DNA of 64,000 nt from Seonamhaeicola sp. S2-3. Lineage in GTDB: Bacteria; Bacteroidota; Bacteroidia; Flavobacteriales; Flavobacteriaceae. Positions 13,477 through 31,964 of this stretch are shown here, one piece after another. Position 1 is the stretch's first letter; each line of letters begins with the position of its first letter. The notes under the pieces were generated by a model. The model was not told where the DNA came from, searched no databases, and worked only from the letters and a program-made list of their open reading frames with translations. The stretch lies in assembly GCF_001971785.1 (NCBI RefSeq), contig NZ_CP019389.1, forward strand, positions 1,251,001 to 1,315,000, written 5' to 3'. The position numbers and the translations under genes were made by a program.

Positions 13477-13512
13477 TTACTAAACAAAAAGAAATTGCCC
13501 CGAAAAATCTTT

Positions 13513-16500
13513 ATGAAAACAAAACTACATTATGTTTTATCAATAGCAACACTTTTAATTGCATTTTCAAGTTTTGCTCAAAATTCTTATTGGAAAAAAC
13601 TAGAATCTGCTAAAAACTCTGAAAAAATATCTAAGTTTCAAATAGATAAAAATAAAGCACATTTTTTTAAGGTTAATAGGGCTCAATTTAACAAAAACAA
13701 AGCAACAGCTTCTTTAAGAAGTTCAAAAAAAAAAGATGAAAACACTATTATCTCAATTCCTGGAATTAACGGAGAGATAGAACAATTTAAAATTTTTGAA
13801 GCCCCTGTTTTTGCTCCAGAATTATCGGCTAAATTCCCCCAAATTAAATCGTATGTAGGTTATAGTTTAAACAAATCTGGTGTACGACTAAGAATGAGTA
13901 CCTCTCCTGAAGGTATTCAAACCATGATTTCGTATCCAGATAAACCAAACGTGTTTATGCAGCCCATTGAAAAAGGTTCAGATACTTACGTTTTATACAA
14001 CAAGGGTAGTAACAGCGCAACATTACATTGTAAAACAATTGATGAAGTAAGTGAAACCTTAAAAAGTAACCTTTCAACTTTAAAAACAAATGATGAAGGC
14101 GGTGCTAATAACCAAGTACTTCAAAAATTCAGAATAGCCATTTCTGTAACTGCTGAATATACAGATTACCATGGCGGAACCGTAGCTGATGCCTTAGCTG
14201 CCATAAACACCACATTAAGCAGAGTAAATGAAGTTTTTGAAACCGATATGGCTATTACTTTTGAACTCGTTGCAAATAATGATCAATTAATTTATACAGA
14301 CCCCTCAACAGACCCCTATTCTAATGCTAGTGTTGGTGCAGAAGGTTCATGGAGCTCAGAAGTACAATCAACAATAACCAGTGTAATTGGAGAAGCTAAT
14401 TACGATATAGGGCATCTTTTTGGAGCATCTGGTGGCGGTGGAAATGCCGGTTGTATTGGGTGTGTATGTAATAATAATACTAAAGGAAGTGCCTACACTT
14501 CACCTTCTGATGGTGTACCAGAAGGCGATTTATTTGATATTGATTTTGTGGCCCATGAAATTGGTCACCAGATGGGTGCAAATCATACTTGGGCTTTTGA
14601 AAACGAAGGCACAGGCGTTCAGTCTGAACCTGGTAGTGGATCAACAATAATGGCTTATGCTGGCCTTGAAGGAGCTAATAATGTTGAATTAAGTGGCGAT
14701 GATTATTTTCATTACCACAGCATTAAACAAATACTTGATAATCTAACAGGAAAAAGTTGTCAAACAACAGAAGTTATAAGCAATAATCCTCCAATTGCAG
14801 ATGCTGGTAGTGATTATAATATCCCTAAAGGAACCGCTTATGTTTTAAAAGGATCTGCTACAGATACTGATAGCGGTGACAACCTAACCTATTGCTGGGA
14901 ACAAACCGATAGTGGCATTACTAACTATCTAAATTTTGGCCCAACATTAACCACAGGGTCAATGAACAGGTCTTTACCGCCATCTAGTTCTCCAAACCGC
15001 TATATACCAAAATTCAGTAGTGTTTTAGCTGGAAAAACAGAACAAACCAATCCAACTTTAGGTAGTGACTGGGAAACCGTTGCTTCGGTTGGAAGAACGC
15101 TTAATTGGGCGTTAACAGTTAGAGATAGATATAATAGCACTTCAACAGGAGGGCAATCTAGCTATGATACCATGCAAATAATTGTTGAAGACGTAACCCC
15201 TTTTACGGTTGATAACCCCATTTCTTGGGCACAAGGAAGCATTCAAACTATTACTTGGGTTGTTGGAGAAACCACCAACGCTACTATAAATTGTCAAAAT
15301 GTAAATATTCTTTTATCTACCGATGGAGGCGCTACATTTACAACTATAGCATCAAACACGCCTAATGATGGCTCTTTTGATTACACAGTGCCTGCCACCA
15401 TTGCAGATACTAACCAAGCTAGAATTTTAATAGAAGCGGCTGATAATATATTTTATGATGTATCTGATTTTAACTTCTCTATTTCTACAGACCCCGACTT
15501 TTTTATGGTAAATGACGTTTTATCACCAATTAATTGTGGAGATGCTACTGCCACTTTTAATTTTGTTTATGAAGCAGCTAATGGTTTTTCTGAAACTGTA
15601 ACATTTAGTGCTTCAGGAAATCCTTTAGGTTCAACAGTATCGTTTTCACCTTCTAGCATGTCCTCTTCAGGCAATGTTACCATGACAATATCTGATTTAG
15701 ATGATGTTTCACAAGGAGATTATACTATTACTGTTACAGGAACATCAACATCAATTACTAAAAATACAGACTTTGAGTTTCCTTTTTATAATGGTGTTTG
15801 CTCTTCTGTAGCCAATACTGAATATGCAACCAGCACCACTTTAGTTCAATTTAACACAATTAATCAAGTATCTGCTAAACCTTCTGGATACAGTAATTAC
15901 ACTTCCGTATCAACAGATGTAAATAGAAATATCTCTTACGACTTAACTGTTAATGTAAATACCGATGGTAATTTTACAACCAATACAAAAGTTTGGATAG
16001 ATTGGAACCAAAACTGTAGTTTTGATGATGCTGGTGAAGAATATAATTTAGGTGATGCCACCAATGTTGCTAATGGAGCTACAGCTAATTCACCGTTTAC
16101 AATTACAGTGCCTGCCGATGCCGTTACAGGTAATACTACTATGAGAGTTTCAACAAAATTTAAAGATGACGGACTTGTAACTTCATGTGAAAACGGGTTT
16201 GATGGTGAGGTTGAAGATTACACACTAAATATTTTACCAAATTCTGATTATGAAACATCTATCTCATTGGTACAATTAAACAGTATTAATAATGCATCTG
16301 ATAAAGACTCTAGTTATTCTGATTATACATCAATTTCAACAGATATTAATAGAAATAGTAATTATGATTTAACCGTTAATGTTAATACTGAAGGAAATTT
16401 TACCACCAATACAATGGCTTGGATAGATTGGAACCAAAATGGCATTTTTACAGATGCTGGTGAAACATATGATTTAGGAGAAGCAACAAACGCTTCAAAT

Positions 16501-16938
16501 ACAATAACAAGCAACTCACCGCTCTCTATAAATGTGCCTATAGATGCCGCTTTAGGAAGCACTATTATGCGTGTTGCAACAGGCTATATTGGTGAGTCTG
16601 AATTAAATCCCTCTACAAATGGTGGTGATGGCGAAGTTGAAGATTACACGCTAAATATAACACCTACTGCCAATATTGAACAATATGGTTTTGATAACTT
16701 TATAGTATACCCTAACCCTAATAATGGTGAATTTACCATTAAATTAAATGGCTCTCTAACTAGAGATATTACTATTGAACTTTTTGATGCTAGAGGTAGA
16801 TTTTTATTAAGAAAAGTATTTCAAGCAACTGGAGACTTTCAAGAAGATGTTCAGCTTAATTACGTACAATCTGGTATGTATATTTTAAATGTAAGTGATG
16901 GGGTAAAAAAATCAACTAAAAAGATAATTGTTAAATAG
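13513..16938 (+). CDS. Secreted reprolysin-like zinc metalloprotease with GEVED repeats and T9SS sorting domain
   Basis: A 1141-residue secreted protein. A signal peptide (MKTKLHYVLSIATLLIAFSS, then FAQ) is followed by a propeptide-like region to about residue 200. The metzincin catalytic domain has the zinc motif HEIGHQMGANH with His348, Glu349, His352 and His358 and a following Met-turn (TIMAYAG). Two similar GEVED-type modules occupy about 771-912 and 913-1050. A type A T9SS C-terminal domain (FIVYPNPNNGEFTIKLNG to KKIIVK) follows, so export should go through the type IX pathway and end on the cell surface. An upstream in-frame TTG at 13474 is not used as start because the signal peptide begins at the ATG. 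It is a single gene facing away from ribF. Confidence 0.93.
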   Translation: MKTKLHYVLSIATLLIAFSSFAQNSYWKKLESAKNSEKISKFQIDKNKAHFFKVNRAQFNKNKATASLRSSKKKDENTIISIPGINGEIEQFKIFEAPVFAPELSAKFPQIKSYVGYSLNKSGVRLRMSTSPEGIQTMISYPDKPNVFMQPIEKGSDTYVLYNKGSNSATLHCKTIDEVSETLKSNLSTLKTNDEGGANNQVLQKFRIAISVTAEYTDYHGGTVADALAAINTTLSRVNEVFETDMAITFELVANNDQLIYTDPSTDPYSNASVGAEGSWSSEVQSTITSVIGEANYDIGHLFGASGGGGNAGCIGCVCNNNTKGSAYTSPSDGVPEGDLFDIDFVAHEIGHQMGANHTWAFENEGTGVQSEPGSGSTIMAYAGLEGANNVELSGDDYFHYHSIKQILDNLTGKSCQTTEVISNNPPIADAGSDYNIPKGTAYVLKGSATDTDSGDNLTYCWEQTDSGITNYLNFGPTLTTGSMNRSLPPSSSPNRYIPKFSSVLAGKTEQTNPTLGSDWETVASVGRTLNWALTVRDRYNSTSTGGQSSYDTMQIIVEDVTPFTVDNPISWAQGSIQTITWVVGETTNATINCQNVNILLSTDGGATFTTIASNTPNDGSFDYTVPATIADTNQARILIEAADNIFYDVSDFNFSISTDPDFFMVNDVLSPINCGDATATFNFVYEAANGFSETVTFSASGNPLGSTVSFSPSSMSSSGNVTMTISDLDDVSQGDYTITVTGTSTSITKNTDFEFPFYNGVCSSVANTEYATSTTLVQFNTINQVSAKPSGYSNYTSVSTDVNRNISYDLTVNVNTDGNFTTNTKVWIDWNQNCSFDDAGEEYNLGDATNVANGATANSPFTITVPADAVTGNTTMRVSTKFKDDGLVTSCENGFDGEVEDYTLNILPNSDYETSISLVQLNSINNASDKDSSYSDYTSISTDINRNSNYDLTVNVNTEGNFTTNTMAWIDWNQNGIFTDAGETYDLGEATNASNTITSNSPLSINVPIDAALGSTIMRVATGYIGESELNPSTNGGDGEVEDYTLNITPTANIEQYGFDNFIVYPNPNNGEFTIKLNGSLTRDITIELFDARGRFLLRKVFQATGDFQEDVQLNYVQSGMYILNVSDGVKKSTKKIIVK
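15823..16660 (+). repeat. Tandem duplication of a GEVED module inside the metalloprotease gene
   Basis: Two copies of about 426 bases lie head to tail, 15823-16248 and 16249-16660. The shared protein motifs are NRN-YDLTVNVNT-GNFTTNT, WIDWNQN and GEVEDYTLNI. Identity is visible at DNA level in stretches such as TGGATAGATTGGAACCAAAA, so the duplication is not ancient. Confidence 0.85.
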
Positions 16939-19406: not shown

Positions 19407-19488
19407 GCTCAAGTGGCGGAATTGGTAGACGCGCTGGATTCAAAATCCAGTTTCTTCGGAAGTGTGGGTTCGATTCCCACCTTGAGTA
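19407..19488 (+). tRNA. tRNA-Leu (anticodon CAA)
   Basis: The acceptor arms GCTCAAG and CTTGAGT pair with one G-U. The anticodon stem is CTGGA/TCCAG with loop TTCAAAA, giving CAA at 19441-19443 (reads UUG). A long variable arm (TTTCTTCGGAAGT) and the T-loop GTTCGATTC are present, as expected for leucine. The discriminator is A and CCA is not encoded. Confidence 0.97.
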
Positions 19489-19499
19489 CTAAAAAATAA

Positions 19500-19982: not shown

Positions 19983-20330
19983 ATGAACACCACAGATACT
20001 AAATTTAAACAAGCAGAGCAATTTCTTGAATCTGCTAAAAAAGAATTAAACAGACCAGCAGAAGATGTTGTACCATATATGGTATGCAAAAGTACACACA
20101 AATCTATAGCCCATTTTTTAATGGGATTTTTATTGCAAAATAATGTTGCATTTAATGAAGATGACACTGTAGAAGTTTTACTAAAAAAATGCCAAAACAT
20201 TAGTGATAAATTCAACAATTTAGATTTAAAACCTATAACGTTTTCGAAAGATTACGAGTATAGTACAGAATTTAATCAAATGCAAAAATGTATTGATTTA
20301 GCTAACCATACCAAAGAATTAGTTGATTAA
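19983..20330 (+). CDS. HEPN-like small helical protein
   Basis: A 115-residue all-helical protein. The layout KFKQAEQFLESAKKELNRPA, then VVPYMVCKSTHKSIAHFLMG and the C-terminal QMQKCIDLANHTKELV, is that of HEPN-domain proteins. The Arg-x(4-6)-His motif of HEPN ribonucleases is not seen: the matching segment has Lys and His only (CKSTHKSIAH). An RNase role is therefore not supported. Its stop is 47 bases before nifJ, so it probably leads that operon. What a HEPN-like protein does beside PFOR is unknown; a partner or assembly role is a guess. Confidence 0.7.
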   Translation: MNTTDTKFKQAEQFLESAKKELNRPAEDVVPYMVCKSTHKSIAHFLMGFLLQNNVAFNEDDTVEVLLKKCQNISDKFNNLDLKPITFSKDYEYSTEFNQMQKCIDLANHTKELVD

Positions 20331-20377
20331 ATTATAGTAACCAGATATTAAAATAATACACCATAAATTCTCATCCT

Positions 20378-23300
20378 ATGAGCACGTCGATATTTCAAAA
20401 AAGAACAGGCAAGAAGAACAAAACAACTAAATTTAAATACCCAGGTAAACCCATTGCTACCGATGGAAACACCGCCGCCATTATGTGCGAACGTGAATCT
20501 ACCGATGCTGCTGGAGCATACCCAATAACACCTTCTACTCAAATGGGCGAATATTGGGCCGATGCTGCTGCTAAAGGGCATTTAAATATTTCAGACAAAC
20601 CTTTAATATTCATTGAGCCCGAAGGCGAACATGCTGCCGCTGCAGTTACTGCAGGCTTATCAATGACTGGTTTACGTGCTGCAAACTTTTCATCTGGTCA
20701 AGGTATTGCATATATGCATGAATCTCTTTATGCAGCTGTTGGTAAACGCCTAACTTATGTGTTAAATATCGGTGCTCGTGCCATGACAAAATCTACATTA
20801 AACGTTCACGCGGGTCATGATGATTACCATGCTGTAGATGACACTGGTTTTTTCCAAATGTTCGCTAAAAAAGCACAACATGTGGCAGACCTTAATATTA
20901 TTTCTCACCGCATTGCTGAATTAGCGCTTACTCCTGGTATTATTGCTCAAGATGGGTTTTTAACCACACATTTAATAGAGTCTTTTCTATTACCAGAACG
21001 TGAATTAATTAAGGAATATCTTGGAAGACCTGATGATATTATAAAAACTCCAACACCCGCGCAACGTATTATTTATGGTGAAACACGTCGTCGTATACCA
21101 GAACTTTGGGATGTAGACAATCCTTTAATGGCAGGAATTGTTCAAAATCAAGATTCTTACATGCAAAGTGTTGCTGCTCAACGTCCTTTCTTCTTTGATC
21201 ATATTGAAGCATTAGCAGACCAAGCTTTTGACGAATATTATGAACTTACTGGCAGACGCTATCAACGTGTCATGACATATCGATCAGATGATGCAGATTA
21301 CCTTATTTTAGGACAAGGAAGTTTAGTTCCTAGTGCCGAAGTAGTTGTAGATTATTTACGTGAAACAAGAGGTATTAAAGTAGGTGTGGTAGATTTAGTT
21401 ATGTTTAGACCATTCCCTGCAGATATGCTTGGTGAAATACTAAAAGGTAAAAAAGCTGTTACTATTTTAGAACGATTAGACCAACCTTTAGCAGTAGATT
21501 CTCCAATTACACGAGAAGTTCGTTCTGTTATAAATAAATGTATAGAAAACGGCATCAACAAAAATCAAAAACCTTACCCAGAATTAAGTTCATATGCTTT
21601 AGGCGATATTCCTTCAGTATATTCTGGAGCATTTGGTTTAGGTAGCCGCGACTTACAACCAGAAGGTATTATAGGTGCAGTTGAAAACATGCTACCTAAA
21701 GGCAAACAAAAAAAACAGTTTTACCTTTCTATAGATTTTATTAAAAAAGTACCTAGTTCTCCAAAACAAAAAGCTTATCAAGAAACCATTGAAGAATCTT
21801 ATCCAAAAGTTAAAGAACTAGCTATTAGAGGGTCAGAAAACCCTAACCTTATGCCAAAAGACGCTATTACTGTGCGTTTCCACTCCATAGGTGGTTGGGG
21901 AGCTATTACAACGGGTAAAAATCTTGCAATGACCTTGTATGAGCTACTTGGTTATAACATTAAAGCAAATCCAAAATATGGTTCTGAGAAAAAAGGACAG
22001 CCCACTACTTATTATTTAGCTGCTGCCCCAGAACCTATTAGAATAAATTGCGAATATTATTTTGTTGATGTAGTACTATCTCCAGACCCAAATGTATTTA
22101 AACATACCAACGCACTAGCTGGACTTAAAAAAGGAGGTAGCTTTATTATTCAAAGTGATAAAAATACACCAGATGAAGTTTGGGCCGAAATTCCTGAACA
22201 TTACCAAAAAATAATTGTTGATAATGATATTCATGTATTCTATATAGATGGATTTAAAATTGCAAGAGAAGAAGCTACAGACCCTGAACTTCAATTACGT
22301 ATGCAGGGTATTGCTTTCCAAGGCGCCTTTTTTGCAGCTTCCCCTCTAATGAAAAAATCTGGACTTACAGAAGAAAAACTACTAAAAGCTATTGAAGATC
22401 AATTACAATACAAATTTGGTTCAAAAGGACAACGTGTTGTAGATGACAATATGCGTGTAGTAAAACGTGGTTTTGATGAAGTACATGAAATTACAAACAA
22501 AACGCTAGGAACCAAAAAGAAAACAAACGGTATTGCCGCACAAAGTTTACCAGTTCCTAGAATGATGAAAGAAATTCCTCAAAGTGAATCTAAACTTAGT
22601 GATATTCATCGTTTTTGGGAGCAAACAGGTAATTTCTATCTAAAAGGAATGGGTAATGATAACCTTACCGATCCGTTTATTGGATTAAGTGTTATGCCTG
22701 CTGTTTCATCGGTATTCCGAGATATGACAGGTATTCGTTTTGAACACCCAGAATGGATTCCTAATAACTGTACAGCTTGTGGCGACTGTTATACCATATG
22801 CCCAGATACAGCAATTCCTGGACTGGTAAGTGAAGTATCCGATGTTTTTGATACCATAGTAAAACGGGTTAAAAAGAACCACGGAAAAGTAGAACACCTA
22901 CCTAAAGCAGTTCGTAAACTAGAAGGTCATGTTAGAAAATTATTCAATACATCTAAAAGCGGAGAAACAGTTAATGATTTTATTAAGCATGGTATAGACA
23001 TGACGCTTGATGACTTCAATAACGACCCAGGATTAATTAAAGAATTTGATTGGTTTAAAGACGAATTAGGAGAATTTAAATTTGCCTTAACCAGACCATA
23101 CTATGATTTACATGAGAAAAAAGAAAAAAACAGCGGTGGATTATTCAGCATAACCATTAACCCTACTACGTGTAAAGGTTGTATGGAATGTGTTGAAGTA
23201 TGTAATGATGGAGCACTTATTAAAATACCACAAACCGAAGGCTCTGTTGCAAGATTAAATAAAGAATGGGATTTTTGGTTAGACTTACCTAGCACCCCTC

Positions 23301-25321
23301 AAAAGTTCAATCGTATTGATGACCTTGAAGAAAAAATAGGTCCATTAGAAACTATTTTATTAAACAAAGACGCCTACTTAAACTTTGCTAGTGGAGATGG
23401 TGCATGTTTAGGTTGTTCTGAAAAATCAGTAGTACACATTTTCACAGCCACTGTAGAGTCTCTCATGCAACCACGTATTGAGAAGCATATGGCGTACTTA
23501 AAAGAGCTAACAGATAAGCTAGAAAAACACATTCAGGTTAAATTAATGGATGGTGTGAATTTAACAGATTCCAATACCATGTCTAAAATCATAACCGAAA
23601 TGCAAAATTCAGATTTAACCATGGCTGAAATAACCCGTAGGTTAGAGTCTGAACAAGGAGGCGAACCCGTTGACCAAGAATGGTTACGAGATGTAACGCA
23701 ATTACTTGCTCAATTAAAAAACCTACAATGGAAATACACCAACGGAACCACTGGAAAAGGTAGAGCCAATATGGGTATGCTTAACTCTACTGGTTGTACA
23801 TCGGTTTGGGGTAGCACATGGCCTTTTAACCCATATCCTTTCCCATGGGCAAATCATTTATTCCAAGATTCACCTTCTATGGCAATGGGAATATTTGAAG
23901 GGCACATGGCTAAAATGGCAGATGGTTTTAAAGCCATTAGAAAAGCAGAACTAGAACTTTCTGGAAAATACAATCCTGAAGAACATGACCAATTCTTTAC
24001 CTATTTTAATTGGAAACAATTTACAGATGAAGAGTGGTTACTTTGTCCACCAGTAGTAGCATTAGGTGGAGATGGCGCCATGTACGATATTGGTTTCCAA
24101 AACTTATCTCGTTTAATGGCTTCAGGAAAACCAATAAAAGTAATTATTGTTGATACACAAGTATATTCTAACACAGGAGGACAAGCTTGTACTTCCGGAT
24201 TTATTGGTCAGGTATCAGATATGGCACAATACGGTAAAGTATGGAAAGGAAAAAGTGAACCTAGAAAAGAAATTGGCCTCATAGCTATGGCACACAGAAA
24301 CACTTATGTGTTACAAGGTTCTTTAGCAAACACAAGCCAAATGATTGAAGGATTTATTGATGGTTTAACCACTAAACGTCCTGCGCTATTCAATCTATAT
24401 ACAACCTGCCAACCAGAACATGGTGTAGCAGATGATTTAGGTTCTCATCAAGCAAAACTTGCTGTAGAATCTAGAGCATATCCTATTTTTAAATACAATC
24501 CAGATAATGGAATAAAAGCTAAAGAAGCCTTTGATTTATCAGGAAACCCTGCAATGAATCAAACATGGCCAACTTATACTTTAAAATACCTAGAATACGG
24601 TCAAGAGCAAACCATGGAATTACCAATGACCTTTGCAGACTTTGCTTTAACCGAAGCCCGATTTAGAAAACATTTTAGAAAAGTACCTAGAAATGCTTGG
24701 AATGAAAACATGATATTACTAGCAGACTTTTTAGAATTAGATGAAAACGAACGCGAAGGTAAATTCCCTTATATCTGGGCAGTAGATAGAGATCAAAAAC
24801 TAAACAGAGTATTGGTTGCTAAACCAATTGTAGATTCTTGTGAAGAACGACGCGATTTCTGGTTAATGCTACGCGATCTTGCTGGTGTAGAACCAGAAAA
24901 ACTACAAGAAGAAAACCTTGAAGAAAAAATAAGAAATGAAGTTGTTGGAAATATAGCACAAGGTTTAATGCAACTTGCTGGTGGTAACGGAAGTGACGCT
25001 CTTAAAATAGCTATGGAAAAACCCGCAGAATCAAATGGTTTAGCTGCAGAAGAAGCCCAATCAAATGGAGAATATATGGCGCCGTGGTTAGAATCTGATG
25101 AGTGTACCTCTTGCGATGAGTGCATAAATATTAACTCCAATATTTTTGCTTACAATGATGATAACAAAGCTTATATAAAAAATCCAAAAGGAGGTCCTTA
25201 TGAAGACTTAGTTAAAGCTGCCGAAAAATGTACAGCAGGTGTAATACACCCTGGTTTACCGGCAGATAAACTAGCAAAAGATATGGAAAAATGGATAAGT
25301 AGAGGCGAAAAGTATAATTAA
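20378..25321 (+). CDS. nifJ: Pyruvate:ferredoxin (flavodoxin) oxidoreductase, giant form with C-terminal ferredoxin domain
   Basis: A 1647-residue single-chain PFOR, versus about 1170-1200 for the usual enzyme. In order: the pyrimidine-binding domain I (YPITPSTQMGEYWADAAAKG near residue 50), domain II, the gamma domain (FHSIGGWGAITTGKNLAM near 505), a two-cluster ferredoxin domain (Cys798/801/804/808 and Cys932/935/938/942), and the TPP domain. The TPP domain has Cys1010/1013 for the proximal cluster, GGDGAMYDIG near 1231 and YSNTGGQ near 1258. An extra C-terminal ferredoxin-like domain carries Cys1576, 1579, 1582 and 1618. The two central clusters are parted by about 120 residues, far more than normal. 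The reaction is pyruvate + CoA + 2 oxidised ferredoxin to acetyl-CoA + CO2, in the cytosol; another 2-oxoacid is possible. It is followed at once by rnfC. Confidence 0.95.
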   Translation: MSTSIFQKRTGKKNKTTKFKYPGKPIATDGNTAAIMCERESTDAAGAYPITPSTQMGEYWADAAAKGHLNISDKPLIFIEPEGEHAAAAVTAGLSMTGLRAANFSSGQGIAYMHESLYAAVGKRLTYVLNIGARAMTKSTLNVHAGHDDYHAVDDTGFFQMFAKKAQHVADLNIISHRIAELALTPGIIAQDGFLTTHLIESFLLPERELIKEYLGRPDDIIKTPTPAQRIIYGETRRRIPELWDVDNPLMAGIVQNQDSYMQSVAAQRPFFFDHIEALADQAFDEYYELTGRRYQRVMTYRSDDADYLILGQGSLVPSAEVVVDYLRETRGIKVGVVDLVMFRPFPADMLGEILKGKKAVTILERLDQPLAVDSPITREVRSVINKCIENGINKNQKPYPELSSYALGDIPSVYSGAFGLGSRDLQPEGIIGAVENMLPKGKQKKQFYLSIDFIKKVPSSPKQKAYQETIEESYPKVKELAIRGSENPNLMPKDAITVRFHSIGGWGAITTGKNLAMTLYELLGYNIKANPKYGSEKKGQPTTYYLAAAPEPIRINCEYYFVDVVLSPDPNVFKHTNALAGLKKGGSFIIQSDKNTPDEVWAEIPEHYQKIIVDNDIHVFYIDGFKIAREEATDPELQLRMQGIAFQGAFFAASPLMKKSGLTEEKLLKAIEDQLQYKFGSKGQRVVDDNMRVVKRGFDEVHEITNKTLGTKKKTNGIAAQSLPVPRMMKEIPQSESKLSDIHRFWEQTGNFYLKGMGNDNLTDPFIGLSVMPAVSSVFRDMTGIRFEHPEWIPNNCTACGDCYTICPDTAIPGLVSEVSDVFDTIVKRVKKNHGKVEHLPKAVRKLEGHVRKLFNTSKSGETVNDFIKHGIDMTLDDFNNDPGLIKEFDWFKDELGEFKFALTRPYYDLHEKKEKNSGGLFSITINPTTCKGCMECVEVCNDGALIKIPQTEGSVARLNKEWDFWLDLPSTPQKFNRIDDLEEKIGPLETILLNKDAYLNFASGDGACLGCSEKSVVHIFTATVESLMQPRIEKHMAYLKELTDKLEKHIQVKLMDGVNLTDSNTMSKIITEMQNSDLTMAEITRRLESEQGGEPVDQEWLRDVTQLLAQLKNLQWKYTNGTTGKGRANMGMLNSTGCTSVWGSTWPFNPYPFPWANHLFQDSPSMAMGIFEGHMAKMADGFKAIRKAELELSGKYNPEEHDQFFTYFNWKQFTDEEWLLCPPVVALGGDGAMYDIGFQNLSRLMASGKPIKVIIVDTQVYSNTGGQACTSGFIGQVSDMAQYGKVWKGKSEPRKEIGLIAMAHRNTYVLQGSLANTSQMIEGFIDGLTTKRPALFNLYTTCQPEHGVADDLGSHQAKLAVESRAYPIFKYNPDNGIKAKEAFDLSGNPAMNQTWPTYTLKYLEYGQEQTMELPMTFADFALTEARFRKHFRKVPRNAWNENMILLADFLELDENEREGKFPYIWAVDRDQKLNRVLVAKPIVDSCEERRDFWLMLRDLAGVEPEKLQEENLEEKIRNEVVGNIAQGLMQLAGGNGSDALKIAMEKPAESNGLAAEEAQSNGEYMAPWLESDECTSCDECININSNIFAYNDDNKAYIKNPKGGPYEDLVKAAEKCTAGVIHPGLPADKLAKDMEKWISRGEKYN

Positions 25322-25336
25322 TATACAAATGGCATA

Positions 25337-26695
25337 ATGGCATTGTTCAATTTTCATAAAGACACATTTAAGCACGGTATTCATCCACCTGAGAGTAAAG
25401 ACGAAACTAACGGCTTACCAATAAGGCAGTTTCCCTTTTCTCCACTAATTATTTTACCAATGGCGCAACATATTGGTGCGCCTTCACAAATAATTGTTCG
25501 GGAAGGACAAGAAGTACATAGAGGACAATTATTAGCAAAAGCTGGTGGTTACGTTTCTGTGCCTATGCATGCGCCAGTTTCAGGAATTATTAAGAAAATT
25601 GCAAATGTTCCAACAATTTCGGGTAAAATGTCTCCTGGTATTTTTATTGAAGCATTTCCGTTTTCAACACAAGAAGTTCTTGAAGGAAACCCCATTGACC
25701 CCAATACAGCAACACCCGAAGAAATTTTACAGGCAATTCAAGATGCCGGAATTGTAGGGTTGGGTGGTGCTGCATTTCCAACGCATGTGAAACTAAAAGT
25801 TCCAGAAGGAAAAAAATGTGATACTTTAATTATTAATGGTATTGAATGTGAACCTTATTTAACAACAGACCACCGTGTTATGTTAGAGCAGGAAAAAGAC
25901 ATTTTTACCGGTATTAGATATTTATTGAAAGCCACAGGAACTAAAAAAGTTATTATAGGAATTGAAGCCAACAAACAAGATGCCGCTAACCATTTAAAAA
26001 AACATATTCCTGAAGATTTACCTGTTACAGTAAAAGTGCTTCCTGTTAAATACCCCCAAGGCGCAGAAAAAATGTTAGTAACTGCTGTTTTAGGGAAAGA
26101 AATTCCATCAGGCAAACTTCCTATTGAAGTTGGTGTTGTTGTGGTTAATGTAGCAACCACTGCCGAAATAGGAAGATTACTACCTCATGGTCAAGGCATT
26201 CAAGAACGCGTTATTACCATTGCAGGACCAGGAGTTAAAAAGAAAGGAAATTATACTATTCCAATAGGCACACCTCTACGTTTTGTACTAGAACAAGTAG
26301 GTGTTGATGAAGAAATTAGCGAAGTTTATATGGGGGGTCCCATGATGGGAGTTGCTGTTTCAAACTTAGATATTTCAATAGTAAAAGGTACTTCAGGTAT
26401 TCTTGTCTTTACAAAAAAGAATGTAAGTAGATCACCTAAAATATATCCTTGTATTAAATGTGGCGCTTGTGTAGATGCATGTCCTATTTTATTAAATCCA
26501 TCAAAACTAGGTATCCTAGCAAAATTTGAAGCTTATAATGAAATGGCTTCAGATTTTAATTTAATGGATTGTTTTGAATGTGGCTCATGTACGTACGTGT
26601 GTCCATCTCATATACCACTGGTACAGTATTTTAGATTAGCCAAACGCGTTGTAAGAAAGCGTGAAGCAGAAAAAAAAGAGAAAGTAGATGCTTAA
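25337..26695 (+). CDS. rnfC: Rnf electron transport complex subunit C
   Basis: A 452-residue peripheral subunit that exchanges electrons with NAD(H). The N-terminal HGIHPPESKD, a GLGGAAFPTHVK motif at about 141 (FMN/NADH-binding fold like NqrF/Nuo51), a SLBB-like part, and two [4Fe-4S] sets starting at Cys372 (CIKCGACVDACP) and Cys412 (CFECGSCTYVCP) identify RnfC. It starts 15 bases after nifJ stops and overlaps rnfD by eight bases, so the operon is continuous. Confidence 0.96.
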   Translation: MALFNFHKDTFKHGIHPPESKDETNGLPIRQFPFSPLIILPMAQHIGAPSQIIVREGQEVHRGQLLAKAGGYVSVPMHAPVSGIIKKIANVPTISGKMSPGIFIEAFPFSTQEVLEGNPIDPNTATPEEILQAIQDAGIVGLGGAAFPTHVKLKVPEGKKCDTLIINGIECEPYLTTDHRVMLEQEKDIFTGIRYLLKATGTKKVIIGIEANKQDAANHLKKHIPEDLPVTVKVLPVKYPQGAEKMLVTAVLGKEIPSGKLPIEVGVVVVNVATTAEIGRLLPHGQGIQERVITIAGPGVKKKGNYTIPIGTPLRFVLEQVGVDEEISEVYMGGPMMGVAVSNLDISIVKGTSGILVFTKKNVSRSPKIYPCIKCGACVDACPILLNPSKLGILAKFEAYNEMASDFNLMDCFECGSCTYVCPSHIPLVQYFRLAKRVVRKREAEKKEKVDA

Positions 26696-27689
26696 AAAAA
26701 CATTAGATATTAGCTCATCGCCACATATAGTTAAGGGGCGAAGTACAGAAGATATTATGAAAAACGTAGTATGGGCGTTGTTACCTGTTGTGTTTTTCTC
26801 TGTTTATTCTTTTGGACTAAATGCATTACTAGTAATATTTACAACAACCTTTGCGAGTGTATTCACTGAACATTTTTTATGTAAACTTTCTAAAAAAGAA
26901 ACTACTATTAATGATTATTCTGCAGTAATTACTGGGTTGCTACTAGGACTTTCATTACCCCCAAGTTTTCCATTATGGATGGCTTTTGTAGGTGGTGTTA
27001 TAGCTATTGCGCTTGGTAAGTATATTTTTGGCGGTTTAGGATACAATGTGTTTAATCCTGCATTAGTAGCTAGAGCTGTTTTACAAGCCGCTTTTCCAGT
27101 TGCCATTACTACATGGCATCCAGCATTTCTATCAAACCGATTTACATCTATTTCGCAATCTGTTTTTACATGGCCTTTTATGGAGCCACAATACGATGCT
27201 ATTTCGGGAGCAACCCCACTTTCAGCATTTAAGTTTGATGGTATTACAACATCAACAGCAGAATTAGCTTTCGGTCAAATAAGTGGTTCAACAGGAGAAA
27301 CCTGCGCTATAATCATTGCTTTGGGTGGTATCTATTTAATTGCACGTAATATGATGTCATGGAGAATTCCAGTTGCAGTACTACTAAGTGCTTTTTTATT
27401 AAGTGGAATACTTTATTTATTCAATAGTGAAATATACCCATCGCCAGTGTTTATGCTATTATCTGGAGGATTAATGCTAGGAGCTGTTTTTATGGCTACA
27501 GACATGGTTTCATCTCCAATAACGCCACTAGGTTTGTGGATATATGGTGCTATAATTGGCATTCTAACCATTGTAATTAGAGTGTGGGGTGGTTTATCAG
27601 AAGGGGTTATGTATTCTATTCTATTAGCTAATGCTATTTCTCCCCATATAGATTCGGTTATTAAAAATCGAGTATATGGAACTAAATAA
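26688..27689 (+). CDS. rnfD: Rnf complex subunit D (covalent-FMN membrane subunit)
   Basis: A 333-residue membrane protein with about nine or ten helices. It starts MLKKTLDISSSPHIVKGRST, the classic RnfD head, and contains the FMN attachment motif SGATPLSA near residue 174, where Thr carries FMN by phosphoester in the family. The motif GGLGYNVFNPALVARA is also standard. RnfD is part of the ion-moving core. Its gene overlaps rnfC and is followed 14 bases later by rnfG. Confidence 0.96.
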   Translation: MLKKTLDISSSPHIVKGRSTEDIMKNVVWALLPVVFFSVYSFGLNALLVIFTTTFASVFTEHFLCKLSKKETTINDYSAVITGLLLGLSLPPSFPLWMAFVGGVIAIALGKYIFGGLGYNVFNPALVARAVLQAAFPVAITTWHPAFLSNRFTSISQSVFTWPFMEPQYDAISGATPLSAFKFDGITTSTAELAFGQISGSTGETCAIIIALGGIYLIARNMMSWRIPVAVLLSAFLLSGILYLFNSEIYPSPVFMLLSGGLMLGAVFMATDMVSSPITPLGLWIYGAIIGILTIVIRVWGGLSEGVMYSILLANAISPHIDSVIKNRVYGTK

Positions 27690-27703
27690 AAAATGAAAGC
27701 CGC

Positions 27704-28408
27704 ATGAGTGAAGTTGCTAACATAAAAAAACAAAATCTTGCTGGTAGCAAAAAAATGTTATTGGCTATGGTTAGTATTGGGATTATAAGTGCGTTGCTTA
27801 TAGTTACAACCTTTGAATTAACACTACCACGTGTACAAAAATTAAAGGCTGAAGCACTAGAAAAAGCCATTTTTGAAGTGCTACCAGGAACCGTTAAAAC
27901 CCAAGCTTTTGGTGTAAATAACAACGGAGAATTATTTAAAATGGAAGCAGGAGACAAAACCGAAACTACAGTTTACGCAGGGTATGATGATAATAACAAT
28001 ATTGTAGGGTATGCCGTAGAAGCTTCGGGACAAGGATATGCAGATATTATAAGGGTATTGTATGGGTATAAACCAGATAAAGAAATACTCATTGGTTTTC
28101 AAGTTTTAGAAAGTAAAGAAACTCCAGGACTGGGTGATAAAATTGAAAAGGAAGTACATTTTCTAAACAATTTTAAAGCACTAGATGTTAGTTTAACATC
28201 CAACAAAAAAGAGTTAAACAACAAAGTAATTACTGTAAAACAAGGCGAAAAAGTAAACCCTTGGGAAATAGACGGCATTACCGGAGCTACAATCTCATCA
28301 AGAGCTATAGGAAATATTATTGGAACAAGTACAGAAACCTTAGTTCCAATTTTATATAATCATTTTAAGAACAACAATCATAAAACAAGTGAAAGCAATG
28401 AGCAATGA
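27704..28408 (+). CDS. rnfG: Rnf complex subunit G (FMN-binding)
   Basis: A 234-residue protein with one N-terminal membrane helix (about 18-38) and an extracytoplasmic FMN domain. Key blocks are ASGQGYADIIRVLYGYKPD, ESKETPGLGDKI, and the FMN attachment site DGITGATISSRAIGNII near residue 196, where the Thr after GA binds FMN. It overlaps rnfE by 11 bases. Confidence 0.95.
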   Translation: MSEVANIKKQNLAGSKKMLLAMVSIGIISALLIVTTFELTLPRVQKLKAEALEKAIFEVLPGTVKTQAFGVNNNGELFKMEAGDKTETTVYAGYDDNNNIVGYAVEASGQGYADIIRVLYGYKPDKEILIGFQVLESKETPGLGDKIEKEVHFLNNFKALDVSLTSNKKELNNKVITVKQGEKVNPWEIDGITGATISSRAIGNIIGTSTETLVPILYNHFKNNNHKTSESNEQ

Positions 28409-29030
28409 CAATGCTTCATCAAAGAAAAAGGTAACCTCAACCGATGAGTTTATTAAAGGATTGTGGAAAGACAACCCCGTATTTGTACAGGTACTAGGTA
28501 TGTGCCCAGTATTGGCTGTTTCTAATACGGCAGAAAATGCTCTTGCCATGGGATTGGCCACCGCTTTTGTTTTGTTAATGTCTAATATTTTAGTTTCTCT
28601 ATTAAGAAATTTTGTTCCTAAGCAGGTACGTATAGCCTCATATATTCTCATCATTGCTACGTTTGTTACGGTAACAGATTATGCTATTCAAGCCATAAGT
28701 GTTGAATTACATAAAAGCTTAGGAGCTTTCATCTCGCTTATTGTGGTAAACTGTTTGATTTTGAGTAGAGCAGAAGCATTTGCCTCTAAAAACACCGTAT
28801 CAAAATCTATTTTTGATGCTTTAGGAATGGGCTTAGGCTTTACGTTTGCACTTTTCTGTTTAGGAGCAGTAAGAGAAATTCTTGGTAACGGTTCTATATT
28901 CAATATAGCTATTTTTCCTGAAGGATTTCAAAGTTGGATAGTCATGATATTACCTGCTGGTGGATTTTTTACTCTAGCCATATGGCTACTTATAATTAAC
29001 GGAATACAAACAAGAAAAACAAAATCATGA
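28398..29030 (+). CDS. rnfE: Rnf complex subunit E
   Basis: A 210-residue membrane protein with six helices, homologous to NqrD. LWKDNPVFVQVLGMCPVLAV and VVNCLILSRAEAFASKN carry the two cysteines that, with those of RnfA, hold an iron centre within the membrane. The ATG at 28398 is preferred over an in-frame GTG nine bases upstream; both overlap the end of rnfG. It overlaps rnfA by four bases (ATGA). Confidence 0.95.
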   Translation: MSNDNASSKKKVTSTDEFIKGLWKDNPVFVQVLGMCPVLAVSNTAENALAMGLATAFVLLMSNILVSLLRNFVPKQVRIASYILIIATFVTVTDYAIQAISVELHKSLGAFISLIVVNCLILSRAEAFASKNTVSKSIFDALGMGLGFTFALFCLGAVREILGNGSIFNIAIFPEGFQSWIVMILPAGGFFTLAIWLLIINGIQTRKTKS

Positions 29031-29608
29031 ATACGGAATCTTTAGGTACTATTTTTCTAAATGCATGCTTAGTTAACAACTTTGTTTTGGCTTATTTCTT
29101 AGGTATTTGTCCATTCTTAGGTGTATCTGGAAAAATGGAAACTGCCACAAAAATGGGTGGCGCAGTAATGTTTGTAATGCTAATAAGCTCTATGTGTGCT
29201 TACGGAATACATGCTTTTTTAGTAAGTATTGGTGCACCTTTTTTACAACTTATTAGCTATATAGTTGTAATAGCTTCTACCGTGCAGTTAGTAGAAATGT
29301 TCATTAAAAAAATAAGTCCATCCTTATTCAGATCTCTTGGAATATTTCTTCCTTTAATTACAACAAATTGTGCCATTTTGGGTGTAGCATTATTTCAAAC
29401 AAATAAAGAATATGACTTTTTAGAAAGTATAGTATATGCGCTTGGTGCCGGGGCAGGATTTACACTAGCATTAATATTAATTGCCGGATTAAGAGAACAA
29501 TTAGAATTTGCCGAAGTTCCAAAAATTTCAAAAGGAACAGCTTTAACACTATTTATTGCTGGCATCTTATCGCTATGCTTTATGGGATTTGCAGGTTTAG
29601 GAGGTTAA
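29027..29608 (+). CDS. rnfA: Rnf complex subunit A
   Basis: A 193-residue six-helix membrane protein, the partner of RnfE and homologous to NqrE. NNFVLAYFLGICPFLGVSGK and PLITTNCAILGVALFQ are the matching Cys-bearing half-helices. Its gene overlaps rnfE (ATGA) and is followed 14 bases later by a small Cys-rich membrane protein gene, placed just where an Fe-S assembly helper would be useful. Confidence 0.96.
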   Translation: MNTESLGTIFLNACLVNNFVLAYFLGICPFLGVSGKMETATKMGGAVMFVMLISSMCAYGIHAFLVSIGAPFLQLISYIVVIASTVQLVEMFIKKISPSLFRSLGIFLPLITTNCAILGVALFQTNKEYDFLESIVYALGAGAGFTLALILIAGLREQLEFAEVPKISKGTALTLFIAGILSLCFMGFAGLGG

Positions 29609-29622
29609 AAAAGAATAACAAA

Positions 29623-29829
29623 ATGATTAAATCACTCATCATAGGAATTGGTTTTATAGTAACTATAGCAGTAGCTTGGGTACTAGTGCAAACCTTATGG
29701 AAAAAAGTTTTTAAAGAAGAATACTCTCAAGACGATGTTTTAGCAGGCAGAAGAAACTGCTCTAATTGTGGTTGTACCACCGTTTGTAAACGAAAGGATA
29801 AAGGGGAAATAACCCCTAAAACTTATTAA
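29623..29829 (+). CDS. 68-residue Cys-rich single-pass membrane protein (NqrM/FeoB-associated type)
   Basis: The ATG at 29623 gives a 68-residue protein; the longer frame from 29575 only re-reads the end of rnfA. One membrane helix (about 3-25) is followed by a short soluble tail with Cys46, Cys49, Cys51 and Cys55 (NCSNCGCTTVCKRK). This is the layout of NqrM, the iron-delivery factor needed for the NqrD/NqrE site, and of FeoB-associated Cys-rich proteins. RnfA and RnfE are the homologues of NqrE and NqrD, so a maturation role for the RnfA/E iron centre is a reasonable inference, not shown. It lies between rnfA and the FNR gene. Confidence 0.75.
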   Translation: MIKSLIIGIGFIVTIAVAWVLVQTLWKKVFKEEYSQDDVLAGRRNCSNCGCTTVCKRKDKGEITPKTY

Positions 29830-29860
29830 ATAAAGAATAACAATAAAATATAAAATAAAC

Positions 29861-30718
29861 ATGGCACATTTATTAGATTTCGATACCGAAAAACAATATA
29901 AGGCAGTGGTTAAAAAAACATCTAGATTAACCCCACAAGACACCGAAGAGGTGCGTGAAATTGTACTAGAAGTTAAAGACCAAGGATTTAATTGCGAGGT
30001 AGACCAAAGTTTTGGCGTATTGGTAAAAGCCTCAGGAGATTTTGGAAACACTTATCATCATAGACTTTACAGTGTAGCAGATTTACCAGCAAAAGTTAAT
30101 GGTAATCCAAAAATTACCATGTTAGTAAAACGTTGCTCGTATGTTGATGATTTTAATGGTGAAGAATATAAAGGTATTGCTTCTCATTATTTATGCAACC
30201 GAAAAAAAGGTGATGAAATAACACTTACAGGGCCGTTTCAACTACCATTTAAAGTACCTGATGATAAAACAGCTAACATGATACTCATTGGTATGGGTAC
30301 AGGTATTGCGCCTTTCCGTGCTTTTATTAAACACATTTATAAAAATGTAAAAAATTGGGAAGGAAAAATTAGATTGTTTTATGGTGCACGTAGCGGTTTA
30401 GAATTATTGTATTTAAATGATAAAGATGGTGATTTAACTAATTACTATGACAAAGATACCTTTGAAGCATTTCATGCACTAAGTCCAAGACCTCATTGGG
30501 CAGATTCTATTGAGTTAGAAAAAGTAATTGAAGAACAAACAGCAGAATTAAAAGAACTACTTTCTAAATCTAACACTTATGTGTACGTTGCAGGATATGC
30601 AAATATACTTAGCAAACTCAACAAATCATTTTCTAAAGTTCTAGGATCAGAAGAAAAATGGAAGCTTCGAAAAGCAGAACTAATAGCTGGTAGAAAATGG
30701 GCTGAAATTATTTTTTAA
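29861..30718 (+). CDS. Plant-type ferredoxin-NADP+ reductase
   Basis: A 285-residue FAD flavoprotein. The FAD motif is RLYSVADLP at Arg68, and the pyridine-nucleotide motif is GMGTGIAPFRAF near 146. The chain ends in an aromatic residue (KWAEIIF), as in plant-type FNR where the last residue stacks on the flavin. At the position of the usual CG motif there is VYVAGYANIL, so the usual Cys is an Ala (about 244). It would pass electrons between reduced ferredoxin and NADP+. It sits between the small Cys-rich gene and rnfB, 31 bases after the former, inside the rnf operon. Confidence 0.88.
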   Translation: MAHLLDFDTEKQYKAVVKKTSRLTPQDTEEVREIVLEVKDQGFNCEVDQSFGVLVKASGDFGNTYHHRLYSVADLPAKVNGNPKITMLVKRCSYVDDFNGEEYKGIASHYLCNRKKGDEITLTGPFQLPFKVPDDKTANMILIGMGTGIAPFRAFIKHIYKNVKNWEGKIRLFYGARSGLELLYLNDKDGDLTNYYDKDTFEAFHALSPRPHWADSIELEKVIEEQTAELKELLSKSNTYVYVAGYANILSKLNKSFSKVLGSEEKWKLRKAELIAGRKWAEIIF

Positions 30719-30771
30719 AGTGAATTGTTAAATAAAGAAACATGATGTTTCAATAAAATTCGTGAATTAAT

Positions 30772-31638
30772 ATGTCTATCATTACCGCCATTGCCGCACT
30801 TGGAGGGTTAACTTTACTACTTGCAATTATGCTTATAGTTGCAAACAAAAAGCTTTATGTTTATGAAGACCCTCGTATAGATAAAGTTGAAGATATGTTA
30901 CCTCACGCAAATTGTGGCGCATGCGGGTATCCAGGTTGCAGACCATTTGCAGAAGCTCTAGTTCATGGAAAATCATTACCTGGAAAATGCACTGTTAGTA
31001 CAGATGAAGGCAGACTCTCTATAGCCAAATTTCTTGGGGTAGATTTAGGTGCTGAAGAAAAACAAGTTGCGCGTTTAGCTTGTGCCGGCGGAACCAACGT
31101 AGCTATTAATAGAGCACAATATGTAGGAATTCAAAGTTGTCAAGCAGCTGCCCTAGTTTCAGGTGGCGGTAAAGGATGCTTTTGGGGATGCTTAGGACAT
31201 GGTGATTGCGAAGTGGTATGTGATTTTGATGCTATTACCATGAATGAACATGGATTACCTGTAGTAGACACAGAAAAGTGTACCGCCTGTGGCGATTGTG
31301 TAGAAGCATGTCCTAAAGATTTATTCTCTCTCCAACCTATAAGCCATAAACTTTGGGTAGCCTGTAAAAACTTAGAACACGGAGAAGCTGTTTTAGAAGA
31401 ATGCCAAGTAGGTTGTACCGCCTGCGGAAAATGTGCCATGGATGCCCCTGGTGAATTAATTACAATGAAAAATAATTTACCCCATATTAATTACGCAGAA
31501 AACCATAACACCCAAAAACCCATTGAACGATGCCCAACAGGAGCCATTGTATGGGTAGAAAGCAACGGTGTTATTGTAAAAGGTAAAGAAAGTAAAAAAA
31601 TAATCCGTAAGGGTGCTAGATTAATGGGCAACACTTAA
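30772..31638 (+). CDS. rnfB: Rnf complex subunit B (ferredoxin-type Fe-S subunit)
   Basis: A 288-residue subunit anchored by one N-terminal helix (3-24). The RnfB Fe-S domain CGACGYPGCRPFAEAL follows, then KGCFWGCLGHGDCEVVC, CTACGDCVEACPKDLF, and a last set with CQVGCTACGKCAMDAP. RnfB takes electrons from reduced ferredoxin and feeds the membrane core. It is last in the operon, separated from the FNR gene by 53 bases. The order C-D-G-E-A-B is that of clostridial Rnf operons, here with two extra genes between A and B. Confidence 0.95.
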   Translation: MSIITAIAALGGLTLLLAIMLIVANKKLYVYEDPRIDKVEDMLPHANCGACGYPGCRPFAEALVHGKSLPGKCTVSTDEGRLSIAKFLGVDLGAEEKQVARLACAGGTNVAINRAQYVGIQSCQAAALVSGGGKGCFWGCLGHGDCEVVCDFDAITMNEHGLPVVDTEKCTACGDCVEACPKDLFSLQPISHKLWVACKNLEHGEAVLEECQVGCTACGKCAMDAPGELITMKNNLPHINYAENHNTQKPIERCPTGAIVWVESNGVIVKGKESKKIIRKGARLMGNT

Positions 31639-31697
31639 ATTAATCTTTAACTTTTAAACTCATCAAATATATAATCAAAGTCATTATATTTTTAAAA

Positions 31698-31721
31698 AAT
31701 TACTTAAAGGTTTAAGTAATT
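31698..31721. promoter_or_regulatory. Perfect inverted repeat AATTACTTAAA-GG-TTTAAGTAATT
   Basis: Two perfect 11-base arms with only two bases between them, 60 bases after rnfB. A loose T-rich run (CTTCCTTTTTAT) follows, so it could be a weak terminator of the rnf operon; the very short loop also fits a protein-binding operator. Confidence 0.45.
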
Positions 31722-31852: not shown

Positions 31853-31964
31853 TTATAAATTACACAAATATTAACAATAATTGAATATCTTTAAGGTTAG
31901 AATCATTTCGCTTTAAACCTCTATAATAAATAGAGGTTTAAATTACCAACTAAACTTTAAAATT

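What the first reader, a model, noticed from the sequence alone, without database searches (positions are those of the whole stretch)
19983..31638. PFOR, Rnf and FNR in one operon: a ferredoxin hub in a flavobacterium
A giant PFOR gene is followed within 15 bases by rnfC-D-G-E-A, then a Cys-rich membrane protein, an FNR and rnfB, all on one strand with overlaps or short gaps. Rnf and PFOR are mainly known from anaerobes and phototrophs; in Flavobacteriaceae the usual pump is Nqr. Packing the ferredoxin source (PFOR), a ferredoxin:NAD+ pump (Rnf) and a ferredoxin:NADP+ exit (FNR) in one unit suggests a switchable low-potential electron module. It could work in oxidation, or backwards to carboxylate acetyl-CoA.
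Basis: partly seen in the sequence, partly recalled or inferred. Interest (0 to 1): 0.7.

Follow-up and report, generated by a model that had tools for sequence, protein, structure and literature searches.

The report
Mobile pyruvate-oxidising, ion-pumping gene module
A marine bacterium from an oxygen-respiring family carries a gene cassette that probably oxidises pyruvate with a ferredoxin-tailed enzyme and feeds the electrons into its own ion pump; scattered bacteria of several phyla share the same cassette as a block.

Summary
Window 19983-31638 holds, on one strand, a HEPN-like gene, a 1647-aa PFOR, rnfC-D-G-E-A, a small membrane Cys protein, a plant-type FNR and rnfB. It is a recurrent unit: 47 of the 47 fetched relatives with enough flank (of 80) hold PFOR, rnfCDGEA, fnr and rnfB, in Bacteroidota, Calditrichota, Pseudomonadota, Myxococcota and Acidobacteriota. 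Its PFOR is a separate family with a C-terminal 4Fe-4S ferredoxin domain (77 of 77; 0 of 25 ordinary Bacteroidota PFORs). Its RnfC forms one clade. In Flavobacteriaceae it is rare (8 of 397), and in one genus it is a 12.2-kb presence/absence beside tRNA-Leu. The 14 holders tested keep Nqr and the 12 Bacteroidota among them keep PDH E1, so it is an accessory route. Most likely it is a laterally moving, energy-conserving alternative to PDH for low-oxygen or over-reduced states: electrons to NAD+ through Rnf, to NADP+ through FNR. Direction, complex formation and oxygen tolerance are untested. My paper searches listed no description of the unit.

The parts
19407..19489 (+). tRNA-Leu (CAA), left border of the segment that congeners lack
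   Evidence: ARAGORN; same tRNA next to prs in L176-L180 and L039
19494..31688 (.). 12.2-kb segment absent from congeners; borders are known to tens of bases
   Evidence: left homology to L176, L177, L179 stops at 19489-19493; it resumes as a 25-32-base match at 31689-31695 and then from about 31866-31940
19983..20330 (+). 115-aa HEPN-like four-helix protein, role unknown
   Evidence: PF05168 at E 0.0052, 17.4 bits, below cut-off 22; model pLDDT 91.5, top 5 PDB fold matches all HEPN but at E 0.017-0.049; found in 26 of 47 complete relatives, not found in congeners L039 and L050
20378..25321 (+). long PFOR (1647 aa) with PFOR-type 4Fe-4S sites and a C-terminal 4Fe-4S ferredoxin domain (Cys 1576, 1579, 1582, 1618)
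25337..26695 (+). rnfC
   Evidence: TIGR01945 506.8 bits
26688..27689 (+). rnfD
   Evidence: TIGR01946 322 bits; conserved GATPL motif
27704..28408 (+). rnfG
   Evidence: TIGR01947 103.3 bits, just over cut-off; conserved tGATISS motif
28389..29030 (+). rnfE (GTG start as listed; an in-frame ATG lies at 28398)
   Evidence: TIGR01948 244.3 bits
29027..29608 (+). rnfA
   Evidence: TIGR01943 240 bits
29575..29829 (+). small membrane protein with one likely helix and a CxxCxCxxxC tail; relatives begin at the in-frame ATG at 29623; NqrM-like by eye
   Evidence: no Pfam family over cut-off; found in 46 of 47 complete relatives
29861..30718 (+). plant-type ferredoxin-NADP reductase
   Evidence: closest solved chain 2b5o FNR, E 7.1e-28; RLYS conserved and GmgTGIAPF largely conserved over 55 loci
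30772..31638 (+). rnfB
   Evidence: TIGR01944 97.5 bits; closest solved chains 9eri_B and 7zc6_B RnfB

Best explanation
A self-contained, laterally moving module that works as an energy-conserving alternative to pyruvate dehydrogenase. Steps: (1) the long PFOR oxidises pyruvate to acetyl-CoA and CO2 (inferred from family and conserved sites); (2) electrons run along its 4Fe-4S clusters to its own C-terminal ferredoxin domain (domain shown; path inferred); (3) that domain hands them to RnfB, and Rnf reduces NAD+ while pumping Na+ or H+ (six subunits and motifs shown; coupling inferred from the family); (4) the FNR takes a share to NADP+ (family shown; partner inferred); (5) the small Cys protein probably helps to load the iron-sulphur centre between RnfA and RnfE, as NqrM does for Nqr (inferred). 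It is used beside PDH and Nqr, most likely when oxygen is scarce or NADH/NAD+ is high and PDH is held back (inferred).
For: Complete core in 47 of 47 testable relatives of 80. RnfC over cut-off in 14 of 14 module-positive genomes and in 0 of 10 flavobacteria without the PFOR, picked by hand. 70 module RnfC form one side of a branch against 23 others, SH-aLRT 100, quick tree. Over 55 loci with all eight genes, tree distances of the 28 gene pairs correlate at r 0.69-0.93, permuted maxima 0.16-0.41. C-terminal ferredoxin cysteines in 77 of 77; in the model this part matches D. africanus ferredoxin I at rmsd 0.8, E 0.04. Rnf motifs conserved; ApbE flavin transferase in 20 of 20 genomes. PDH E1 alpha over cut-off in 12 of 12 Bacteroidota holders (22 of 24 genomes in all) and NqrF in 24 of 24: an extra route. 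Precedent: Synechocystis PFOR is needed in aerobic, highly reducing conditions when PDH is inactivated (PMC8887894, abstract and passages). In M. buryatense, whose genome carries the module (L099), a gene called por rose at the CH4/O2 ratio best for growth (PMC7154130, passages); whether it is this PFOR was not checked.
Against: No expression, enzyme or transport data. Pyruvate as substrate rests on homology of about 28% to ordinary PFORs, and the curated PFOR model is not met. Direction is not fixed by sequence. In a sample of 118 genomes of the phylum, 17 of the 19 with RnfC are not among the two long-PFOR holders: Rnf does not need this PFOR. Of 38 well-supported PFOR splits 11 conflict with RnfC, 6-9 with D, G, E, A and FNR, 0 with RnfB. 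Exceptions: L075 has no rnfC in 4.9 kb downstream; L105, left out of the count by 27 bases of flank, has no rnfB in 10 kb upstream or 7.5 kb to its contig end. The deeper relative on a Gemmatirosa plasmid has PFOR and Rnf but no detected fnr or Cys protein. Synechocystis PFOR was stable in oxygen but needed anaerobic conditions for activity in vitro.
Confidence: 0.58

Rival explanations
1. It runs in reverse: Rnf spends NADH and the ion gradient, FNR spends NADPH, to reduce the PFOR ferredoxin domain, and PFOR carboxylates acetyl-CoA to pyruvate during growth on two-carbon or fatty substrates.
For: Rnf is reversible (PMC12174285, start of abstract); PFOR works as pyruvate synthase in Aquifex (PMC10052474, start of abstract); PDH already covers oxidation in the 12 Bacteroidota holders tested.
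Against: It would cost energy in a respiring cell; no sign of direction in the genes. Glyoxylate-shunt genes were not searched.
Confidence: 0.17
2. FNR and Rnf work mainly as an ion-driven NADH/NADPH transhydrogenase through the PFOR ferredoxin domain, with pyruvate oxidation secondary.
For: FNR, Rnf and the PFOR are together in the 47 complete relatives.
Against: A 1647-aa PFOR would be a costly ferredoxin, and many of its TPP-domain and cluster residues are invariant; the Gemmatirosa form has no detected FNR.
Confidence: 0.1
3. It supplies low-potential electrons to other ferredoxin enzymes, above all nitrogenase.
For: Rnf1 does this in Azotobacter (PMC12174285, passages); two methanotroph holders have nifH; in M. 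buryatense por and nif genes rose in the same condition.
Against: nifH is over cut-off in 2 of 14 holders, none of them a flavobacterium; the two methanotrophs each carry two further Rnf sets.
Confidence: 0.08
4. Only neighbours: PFOR, Rnf and FNR are separately useful and were packed by transfer, without working together.
For: Sporadic spread and a presence/absence site favour packing; many Bacteroidota have Rnf without this PFOR.
Against: Same content in several phyla; Rnf tracks the PFOR in the flavobacteria tested; ferredoxin tail peculiar to this PFOR family.
Confidence: 0.07

Closest known systems
Homodimeric PFOR / NifJ (Desulfovibrio africanus 1b0p, Moorella thermoacetica 6cin)
   Same: Domain order, cluster cysteines, best sequence and fold matches
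   Different: 1647 aa, about 28% identity, below TIGR02176 cut-off; extra stretches; C-terminal ferredoxin domain; tied to Rnf. Fold match of residues 490-1647 is only TM 0.39-0.41, rmsd 10-12
Rnf complex (RnfABCDGE; solved in Clostridium tetanomorphum and others)
   Same: All six subunits, flavin and Fe-S motifs. The order C-D-G-E-A with rnfB last is also that of 4 of 6 ordinary Bacteroidota rnf loci read
   Different: Own RnfC clade, 40-46% identical to 17 other Bacteroidota RnfC; linked PFOR, Cys protein and FNR, of which neither FNR nor Cys protein was detected in those 6 loci; one of them has an ordinary PFOR about 3 kb from rnfB
Pyruvate:NADP+ oxidoreductase of Euglena and Cryptosporidium (recalled, not tested)
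   Same: Would link PFOR chemistry to NADP+
   Different: There one fused protein; here separate genes plus an ion pump
Synechocystis PFOR with ferredoxins and FNR (PMC8887894, passages)
   Same: PFOR used beside PDH in an oxygen-exposed cell
   Different: Uses free low-abundance ferredoxins; no Rnf is mentioned in the passages seen
Na+-NQR with its maturation protein NqrM
   Same: Homologous core; NqrM (one protein from genome G777, L149) has one helix and CxCxxxCxxRK, the window protein CxCxxxCxRK, compared by eye
   Different: The Cys protein here has no PF04400 match and belongs to an Rnf operon

Membership tests
PFOR (NifJ type) | TPP, gamma and Fer4 domains in NifJ order | tested here: met
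PFOR (NifJ type) | Curated equivalog score TIGR02176 | tested here: not met
   407.2 bits against 911.35; filed as a divergent PFOR-like family, not as NifJ itself
PFOR (NifJ type) | Cysteines of three 4Fe-4S clusters | tested here: met
   Cys 798, 801, 804, 808, 932, 935, 938, 942, 1010, 1013, 1140, 1344 identical in 77 of 77; which Cys binds which cluster is recalled
PFOR (NifJ type) | Pyruvate as substrate | not testable with these tools
   YPITPS and ARA motifs align with solved PFORs; their link to pyruvate is recalled
Rnf complex | Subunits A, B, C, D, E, G | tested here: met
   all over NCBIfam cut-offs
Rnf complex | Flavinylation motifs in RnfD and RnfG, Cys in RnfA and RnfE, FMN and Fe-S motifs in RnfC and RnfB | tested here: met
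   conserved over 55 loci; the roles of the motifs are recalled
Rnf complex | Ferredoxin:NAD+ activity coupled to ion transport | not testable with these tools
   no biochemistry here
Plant-type FNR | FAD and nucleotide motifs; nearest solved relatives are FNR | tested here: met
Plant-type FNR | NADP(H) specificity | tested here: inconclusive
   largely conserved sprp (ALSPRPHW in the window) lies where solved FNRs have S-R-E; residue roles recalled
NqrM | Match to PF04400 | tested here: not met
   no PF04400 hit for the window protein and one relative
HEPN (gene 19983-20330) | Pfam PF05168 over cut-off | tested here: not met
   17.4 bits against 22; fold resembles HEPN weakly

The most novel reading that the evidence does not exclude
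An ion-pumping pyruvate dehydrogenase: a membrane-docked supercomplex in which the ferredoxin domain of PFOR plugs directly into RnfB, so that low-potential electrons never meet free ferredoxin or oxygen, with FNR docking on the same domain as an NADP+ branch. The block spreads between phyla (for example between Cyclobacteriaceae and Methylotuvimicrobium) as a plug-in that lets aerobes use PFOR chemistry.
Probability: 0.3. Interest if true: 0.82.

Novelty: new variant of a known kind. Interest (0 to 1): 0.6.

Why it matters
PFOR and Rnf are best known from anaerobes; here they form one exchangeable cassette in lineages that mostly respire oxygen (recalled), with a ferredoxin domain fused to the PFOR that could shield low-potential electrons. 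If true, it gives aerobes a pyruvate oxidation step that saves energy which PDH loses and makes NADPH on demand, and shows how anaerobic bioenergetics travels between phyla. A genus-level presence/absence site and a tractable methanotroph holder (M. buryatense) make it testable.

Tried and rejected
Nitrogen fixation as the general role: rejected, nifH over cut-off in 2 of 14 holders. Replacement of PDH or Nqr: rejected for the genomes tested; the two methanotrophs were not tested for another type of PDH E1. Common trait of Flavobacteriaceae: rejected (8 of 397). rnfB at the 3' end as a mark of the module: rejected on re-reading, since 4 of 6 ordinary Bacteroidota loci have it too. Att-type direct repeats at the two borders: none longer than 8 bases (one search looked within each border only); no integrase among the genes of the segment. 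Gain or loss in the genus: unresolved, since a pth-rplY-prs tree does not group the three holders. The module is no closer to congeners (82.5-82.8% DNA) than to Hyunsoonleella (83.2-83.6%), while pth-prs is 83.4-84.1 against 80.0-80.6 (best piece, partly covered): a weak hint of transfer. In the PFOR tree the split relatives L119-L121 and the second L096 copy gave branches of 5-7 changes per column; I use that tree for the module rows only. Trees are quick ones, with warnings on long branches and letter make-up. The model of PFOR residues 490-1647 is middling (pLDDT 68.6), so no interface was read from it.

Rows dropped: the 80 named loci are the best of 440; 33 of the 80 lacked flank for the completeness count, L105 by 27 bases; the count asks for genes on the PFOR strand within the locus (at most about 10 kb off), not for strict adjacency. 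55 loci (window and L123 included) held all eight genes; 77 PFORs of at least 1600 aa; 58 for the structure alignment; of the 25 ordinary PFORs, 7 are cut at a locus end. Taxa are those of record titles, many of them MAGs (L059, titled Rickettsiales, sits among Bacteroidota in both trees). Names of prs, pth, rplY, xylB, xylA and of nqrA-E in L147 are read by eye.

Papers: searches listed none on this unit; most subscription papers are not held. I saw passages of PMC7154130, PMC4014512, PMC12174285 and PMC8887894 (with its abstract), the rest only as listings.
Full report
What is there. The window lies at 1,251,001-1,315,000 of a 3.75-Mb single-contig genome. Its genus is inferred to be Seonamhaeicola: the two other holders in the genus (92% PFOR identity) have the coordinates of S. 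sediminis and S. aphaedonensis records. On the plus strand follow a 115-aa gene, a 1647-aa PFOR, rnfC, rnfD, rnfG, rnfE, rnfA, a small Cys-rich membrane protein, an FNR and rnfB, with gaps of 47, 15, -8, 14, -20, -4, -34, 31 and 53 bases. All six Rnf subunits exceed their NCBIfam subfamily cut-offs, rnfG only just. No small ferredoxin gene was seen in the segment or at its ends.

The PFOR is a family of its own. It has the NifJ domain order but scores 407 bits against a cut-off of 911 for the curated PFOR model. In a phylum sample of 395 genomes two hold a near full-length match (the window's own and G111 at 77%); four more hold partial matches at 38-51%, and ordinary PFORs are about 26-29% identical over part of the query. 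Its C-terminal end is a single-cluster ferredoxin domain (PF13370 at 1573-1624; in the model it matches ferredoxin I of D. africanus at rmsd 0.8, E 0.04). The four cysteines are identical in 77 of 77 module PFORs. A CxxCxxC...C pattern near the end is present in 77 of 77 of these and in 0 of 25 ordinary PFORs, 7 of the 25 being cut at a locus end. The model of residues 490-1647 is middling (pLDDT 68.6); its best fold matches are PFORs, aligned over about 1070 columns but at TM 0.39-0.40 and rmsd near 11.

The unit recurs. A scan of genome contigs kept the best 80 of 440 loci. Of these, 47 have at least 7.5 kb after and 1.5 kb before the PFOR, and 47 of 47 carry rnfC, D, G, E, A, fnr and rnfB with it on the same strand (all loci). 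rnfB is last in 38 (33 Bacteroidota, 4 titled Pseudomonadota, among them two methanotroph genomes, and 1 unassigned) and first in 9 (2 Calditrichota, 2 Myxococcota, 4 Pseudomonadota of which 3 Halieaceae, 1 Acidobacteriota). The Cys protein was found in 46, the first gene in 26; the first gene was not found in the congeners L039 and L050. Exceptions outside the count: L075 shows no rnfC in 4.9 kb; L105, 27 bases short of the flank limit, shows no rnfB in 10 kb upstream or 7.5 kb to its contig end. Six ordinary Bacteroidota rnf loci show neither FNR nor Cys protein; four of the six also have rnfB last; one (L154) has an ordinary PFOR about 3 kb before rnfB. In L096 a PFOR of 1277 aa without the ferredoxin tail forms rnfB-PFOR-rnfCDGEA directly upstream of the module, and on a Gemmatirosa plasmid a 50% identical PFOR with the tail lies in rnfB-PFOR-rnfCDG-EA without a detected fnr. 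The PFOR-Rnf link may thus be older than the FNR and Cys additions (inference).

Inheritance. 70 module RnfC form one side of a branch, SH-aLRT 100, against 23 others; a clade of 14 rows holds 13 flavobacterial ones and one unassigned Bacteroidota MAG; Methylotuvimicrobium and its kin nest within Cyclobacteriaceae. The PFOR tree agrees on the last two points. Over 55 loci with all eight genes, distances of the 28 gene pairs correlate at r 0.69-0.93, permuted maxima 0.16-0.41; of 38 well-supported PFOR splits, 11 conflict with RnfC, 7 with RnfD, 6 with RnfG, 9 with RnfE, 7 with RnfA, 6 with FNR and 0 with RnfB. This fits transfer largely as a block, with noise or some exchange.

Rarity and mobility. 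The long PFOR is in 3 of 7 genomes of the genus and 8 of 397 of the family, 7 of 237 genera. In the genus it lies beside prs and tRNA-Leu(CAA); the four congeners without it keep prs and the tRNA. Against L177, L179 and L176 the window's homology stops at the tRNA end (19489-19493) and resumes as a 25-32-base match at 31689-31695, then from about 31866-31940, so a segment of 12.2 kb is present or absent. In L176 a further stretch lies between tRNA and xylB, and L178 shows no xylB within the stretch read. In Hyunsoonleella the module lies elsewhere, downstream of tRNA-Pro; in 14 other loci scanned (Flavivirga, Flagellimonas and others, methanotrophs included) no tRNA is near. A 1.07-Mb plasmid of Persicobacter psychrovividus carries the module without a detected first gene. 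No long direct repeats mark the borders.

Genome context. Of 24 genomes (14 holders, 10 flavobacteria without it, picked by hand), NqrF is over cut-off in 24, PDH E1 alpha in 22 (all but the two methanotrophs, not tested for another E1 type), RnfC in 14 of 14 holders and 0 of 10 others. Across the phylum Rnf is often alone: 19 of 118 genomes have RnfC, two of them the long-PFOR holders. ApbE is in 20 of 20 tested. nifH is over cut-off only in the two methanotrophs. The window's genome has no second match to this PFOR at E 0.001.

How it probably works. PFOR oxidises pyruvate; electrons pass to its ferredoxin tail, then to RnfB and through Rnf to NAD+ with ion export; FNR branches to NADP+. The first step rests on family and aligned motifs, the tail on sequence and a weak fold match, Rnf competence on conserved motifs, the FNR type on nearest solved chains. 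The Cys protein resembles, by eye, one NqrM (L149); the 2025 review says that insertion of the intramembrane 2Fe-2S centre into NQR seems to require NqrM (PMC12174285, passages). It fails PF04400, so this is a working likeness, not membership. The setting of use, low oxygen or high NADH/NAD+, follows the Synechocystis precedent (PMC8887894), where PFOR was stable in oxygen but needed anaerobic conditions for activity in vitro; it is inference.

Known or new. PMC4014512 gives rnfBCDGEA as the Chlorobi/Bacteroidetes order and mentions no pyruvate gene (0 occurrences of 'pyruvate' and 'nifJ'); the passages of the 2025 review do not describe such a unit. Known parts, new combination: a real, recurrent and mobile module; the mechanism is well motivated but untested.

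Noticed in passing
window 11188-12504 (-): HTTM plus vitamin K-dependent gamma-carboxylase lumenal domain protein in a flavobacterium.
   Followed up: no
window 13474-16938 (+): 1154-aa reprolysin-like metallopeptidase with GEVED and Por secretion tail, beside pth.
   Followed up: no
L096 613-9707: A second cluster rnfB-PFOR (1277 aa, no ferredoxin tail)-rnfCDGEA directly upstream of the module: a possible older form.
   Followed up: partly
L181 (Gemmatirosa kalamazoonensis plasmid): Distant PFOR with ferredoxin tail plus Rnf cluster, without a detected fnr, on a 1.1-Mb plasmid.
   Followed up: partly
L119, L120, L121: In an unnamed family of the same phylum the relatives of the long PFOR are two neighbouring genes (about 660 and 540 aa) with no Rnf detected in the 20 kb read.
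   Followed up: partly
window 31702-31717: Palindrome acttaaaggtttaagt at the right border, kept in empty sites of congeners L177 and L179.
   Followed up: no
window 19983-20330: HEPN-like small gene heads the operon in 26 of 47 complete relatives but was not found in the congeners L039 and L050; its role beside PFOR is unexplained.
   Followed up: partly
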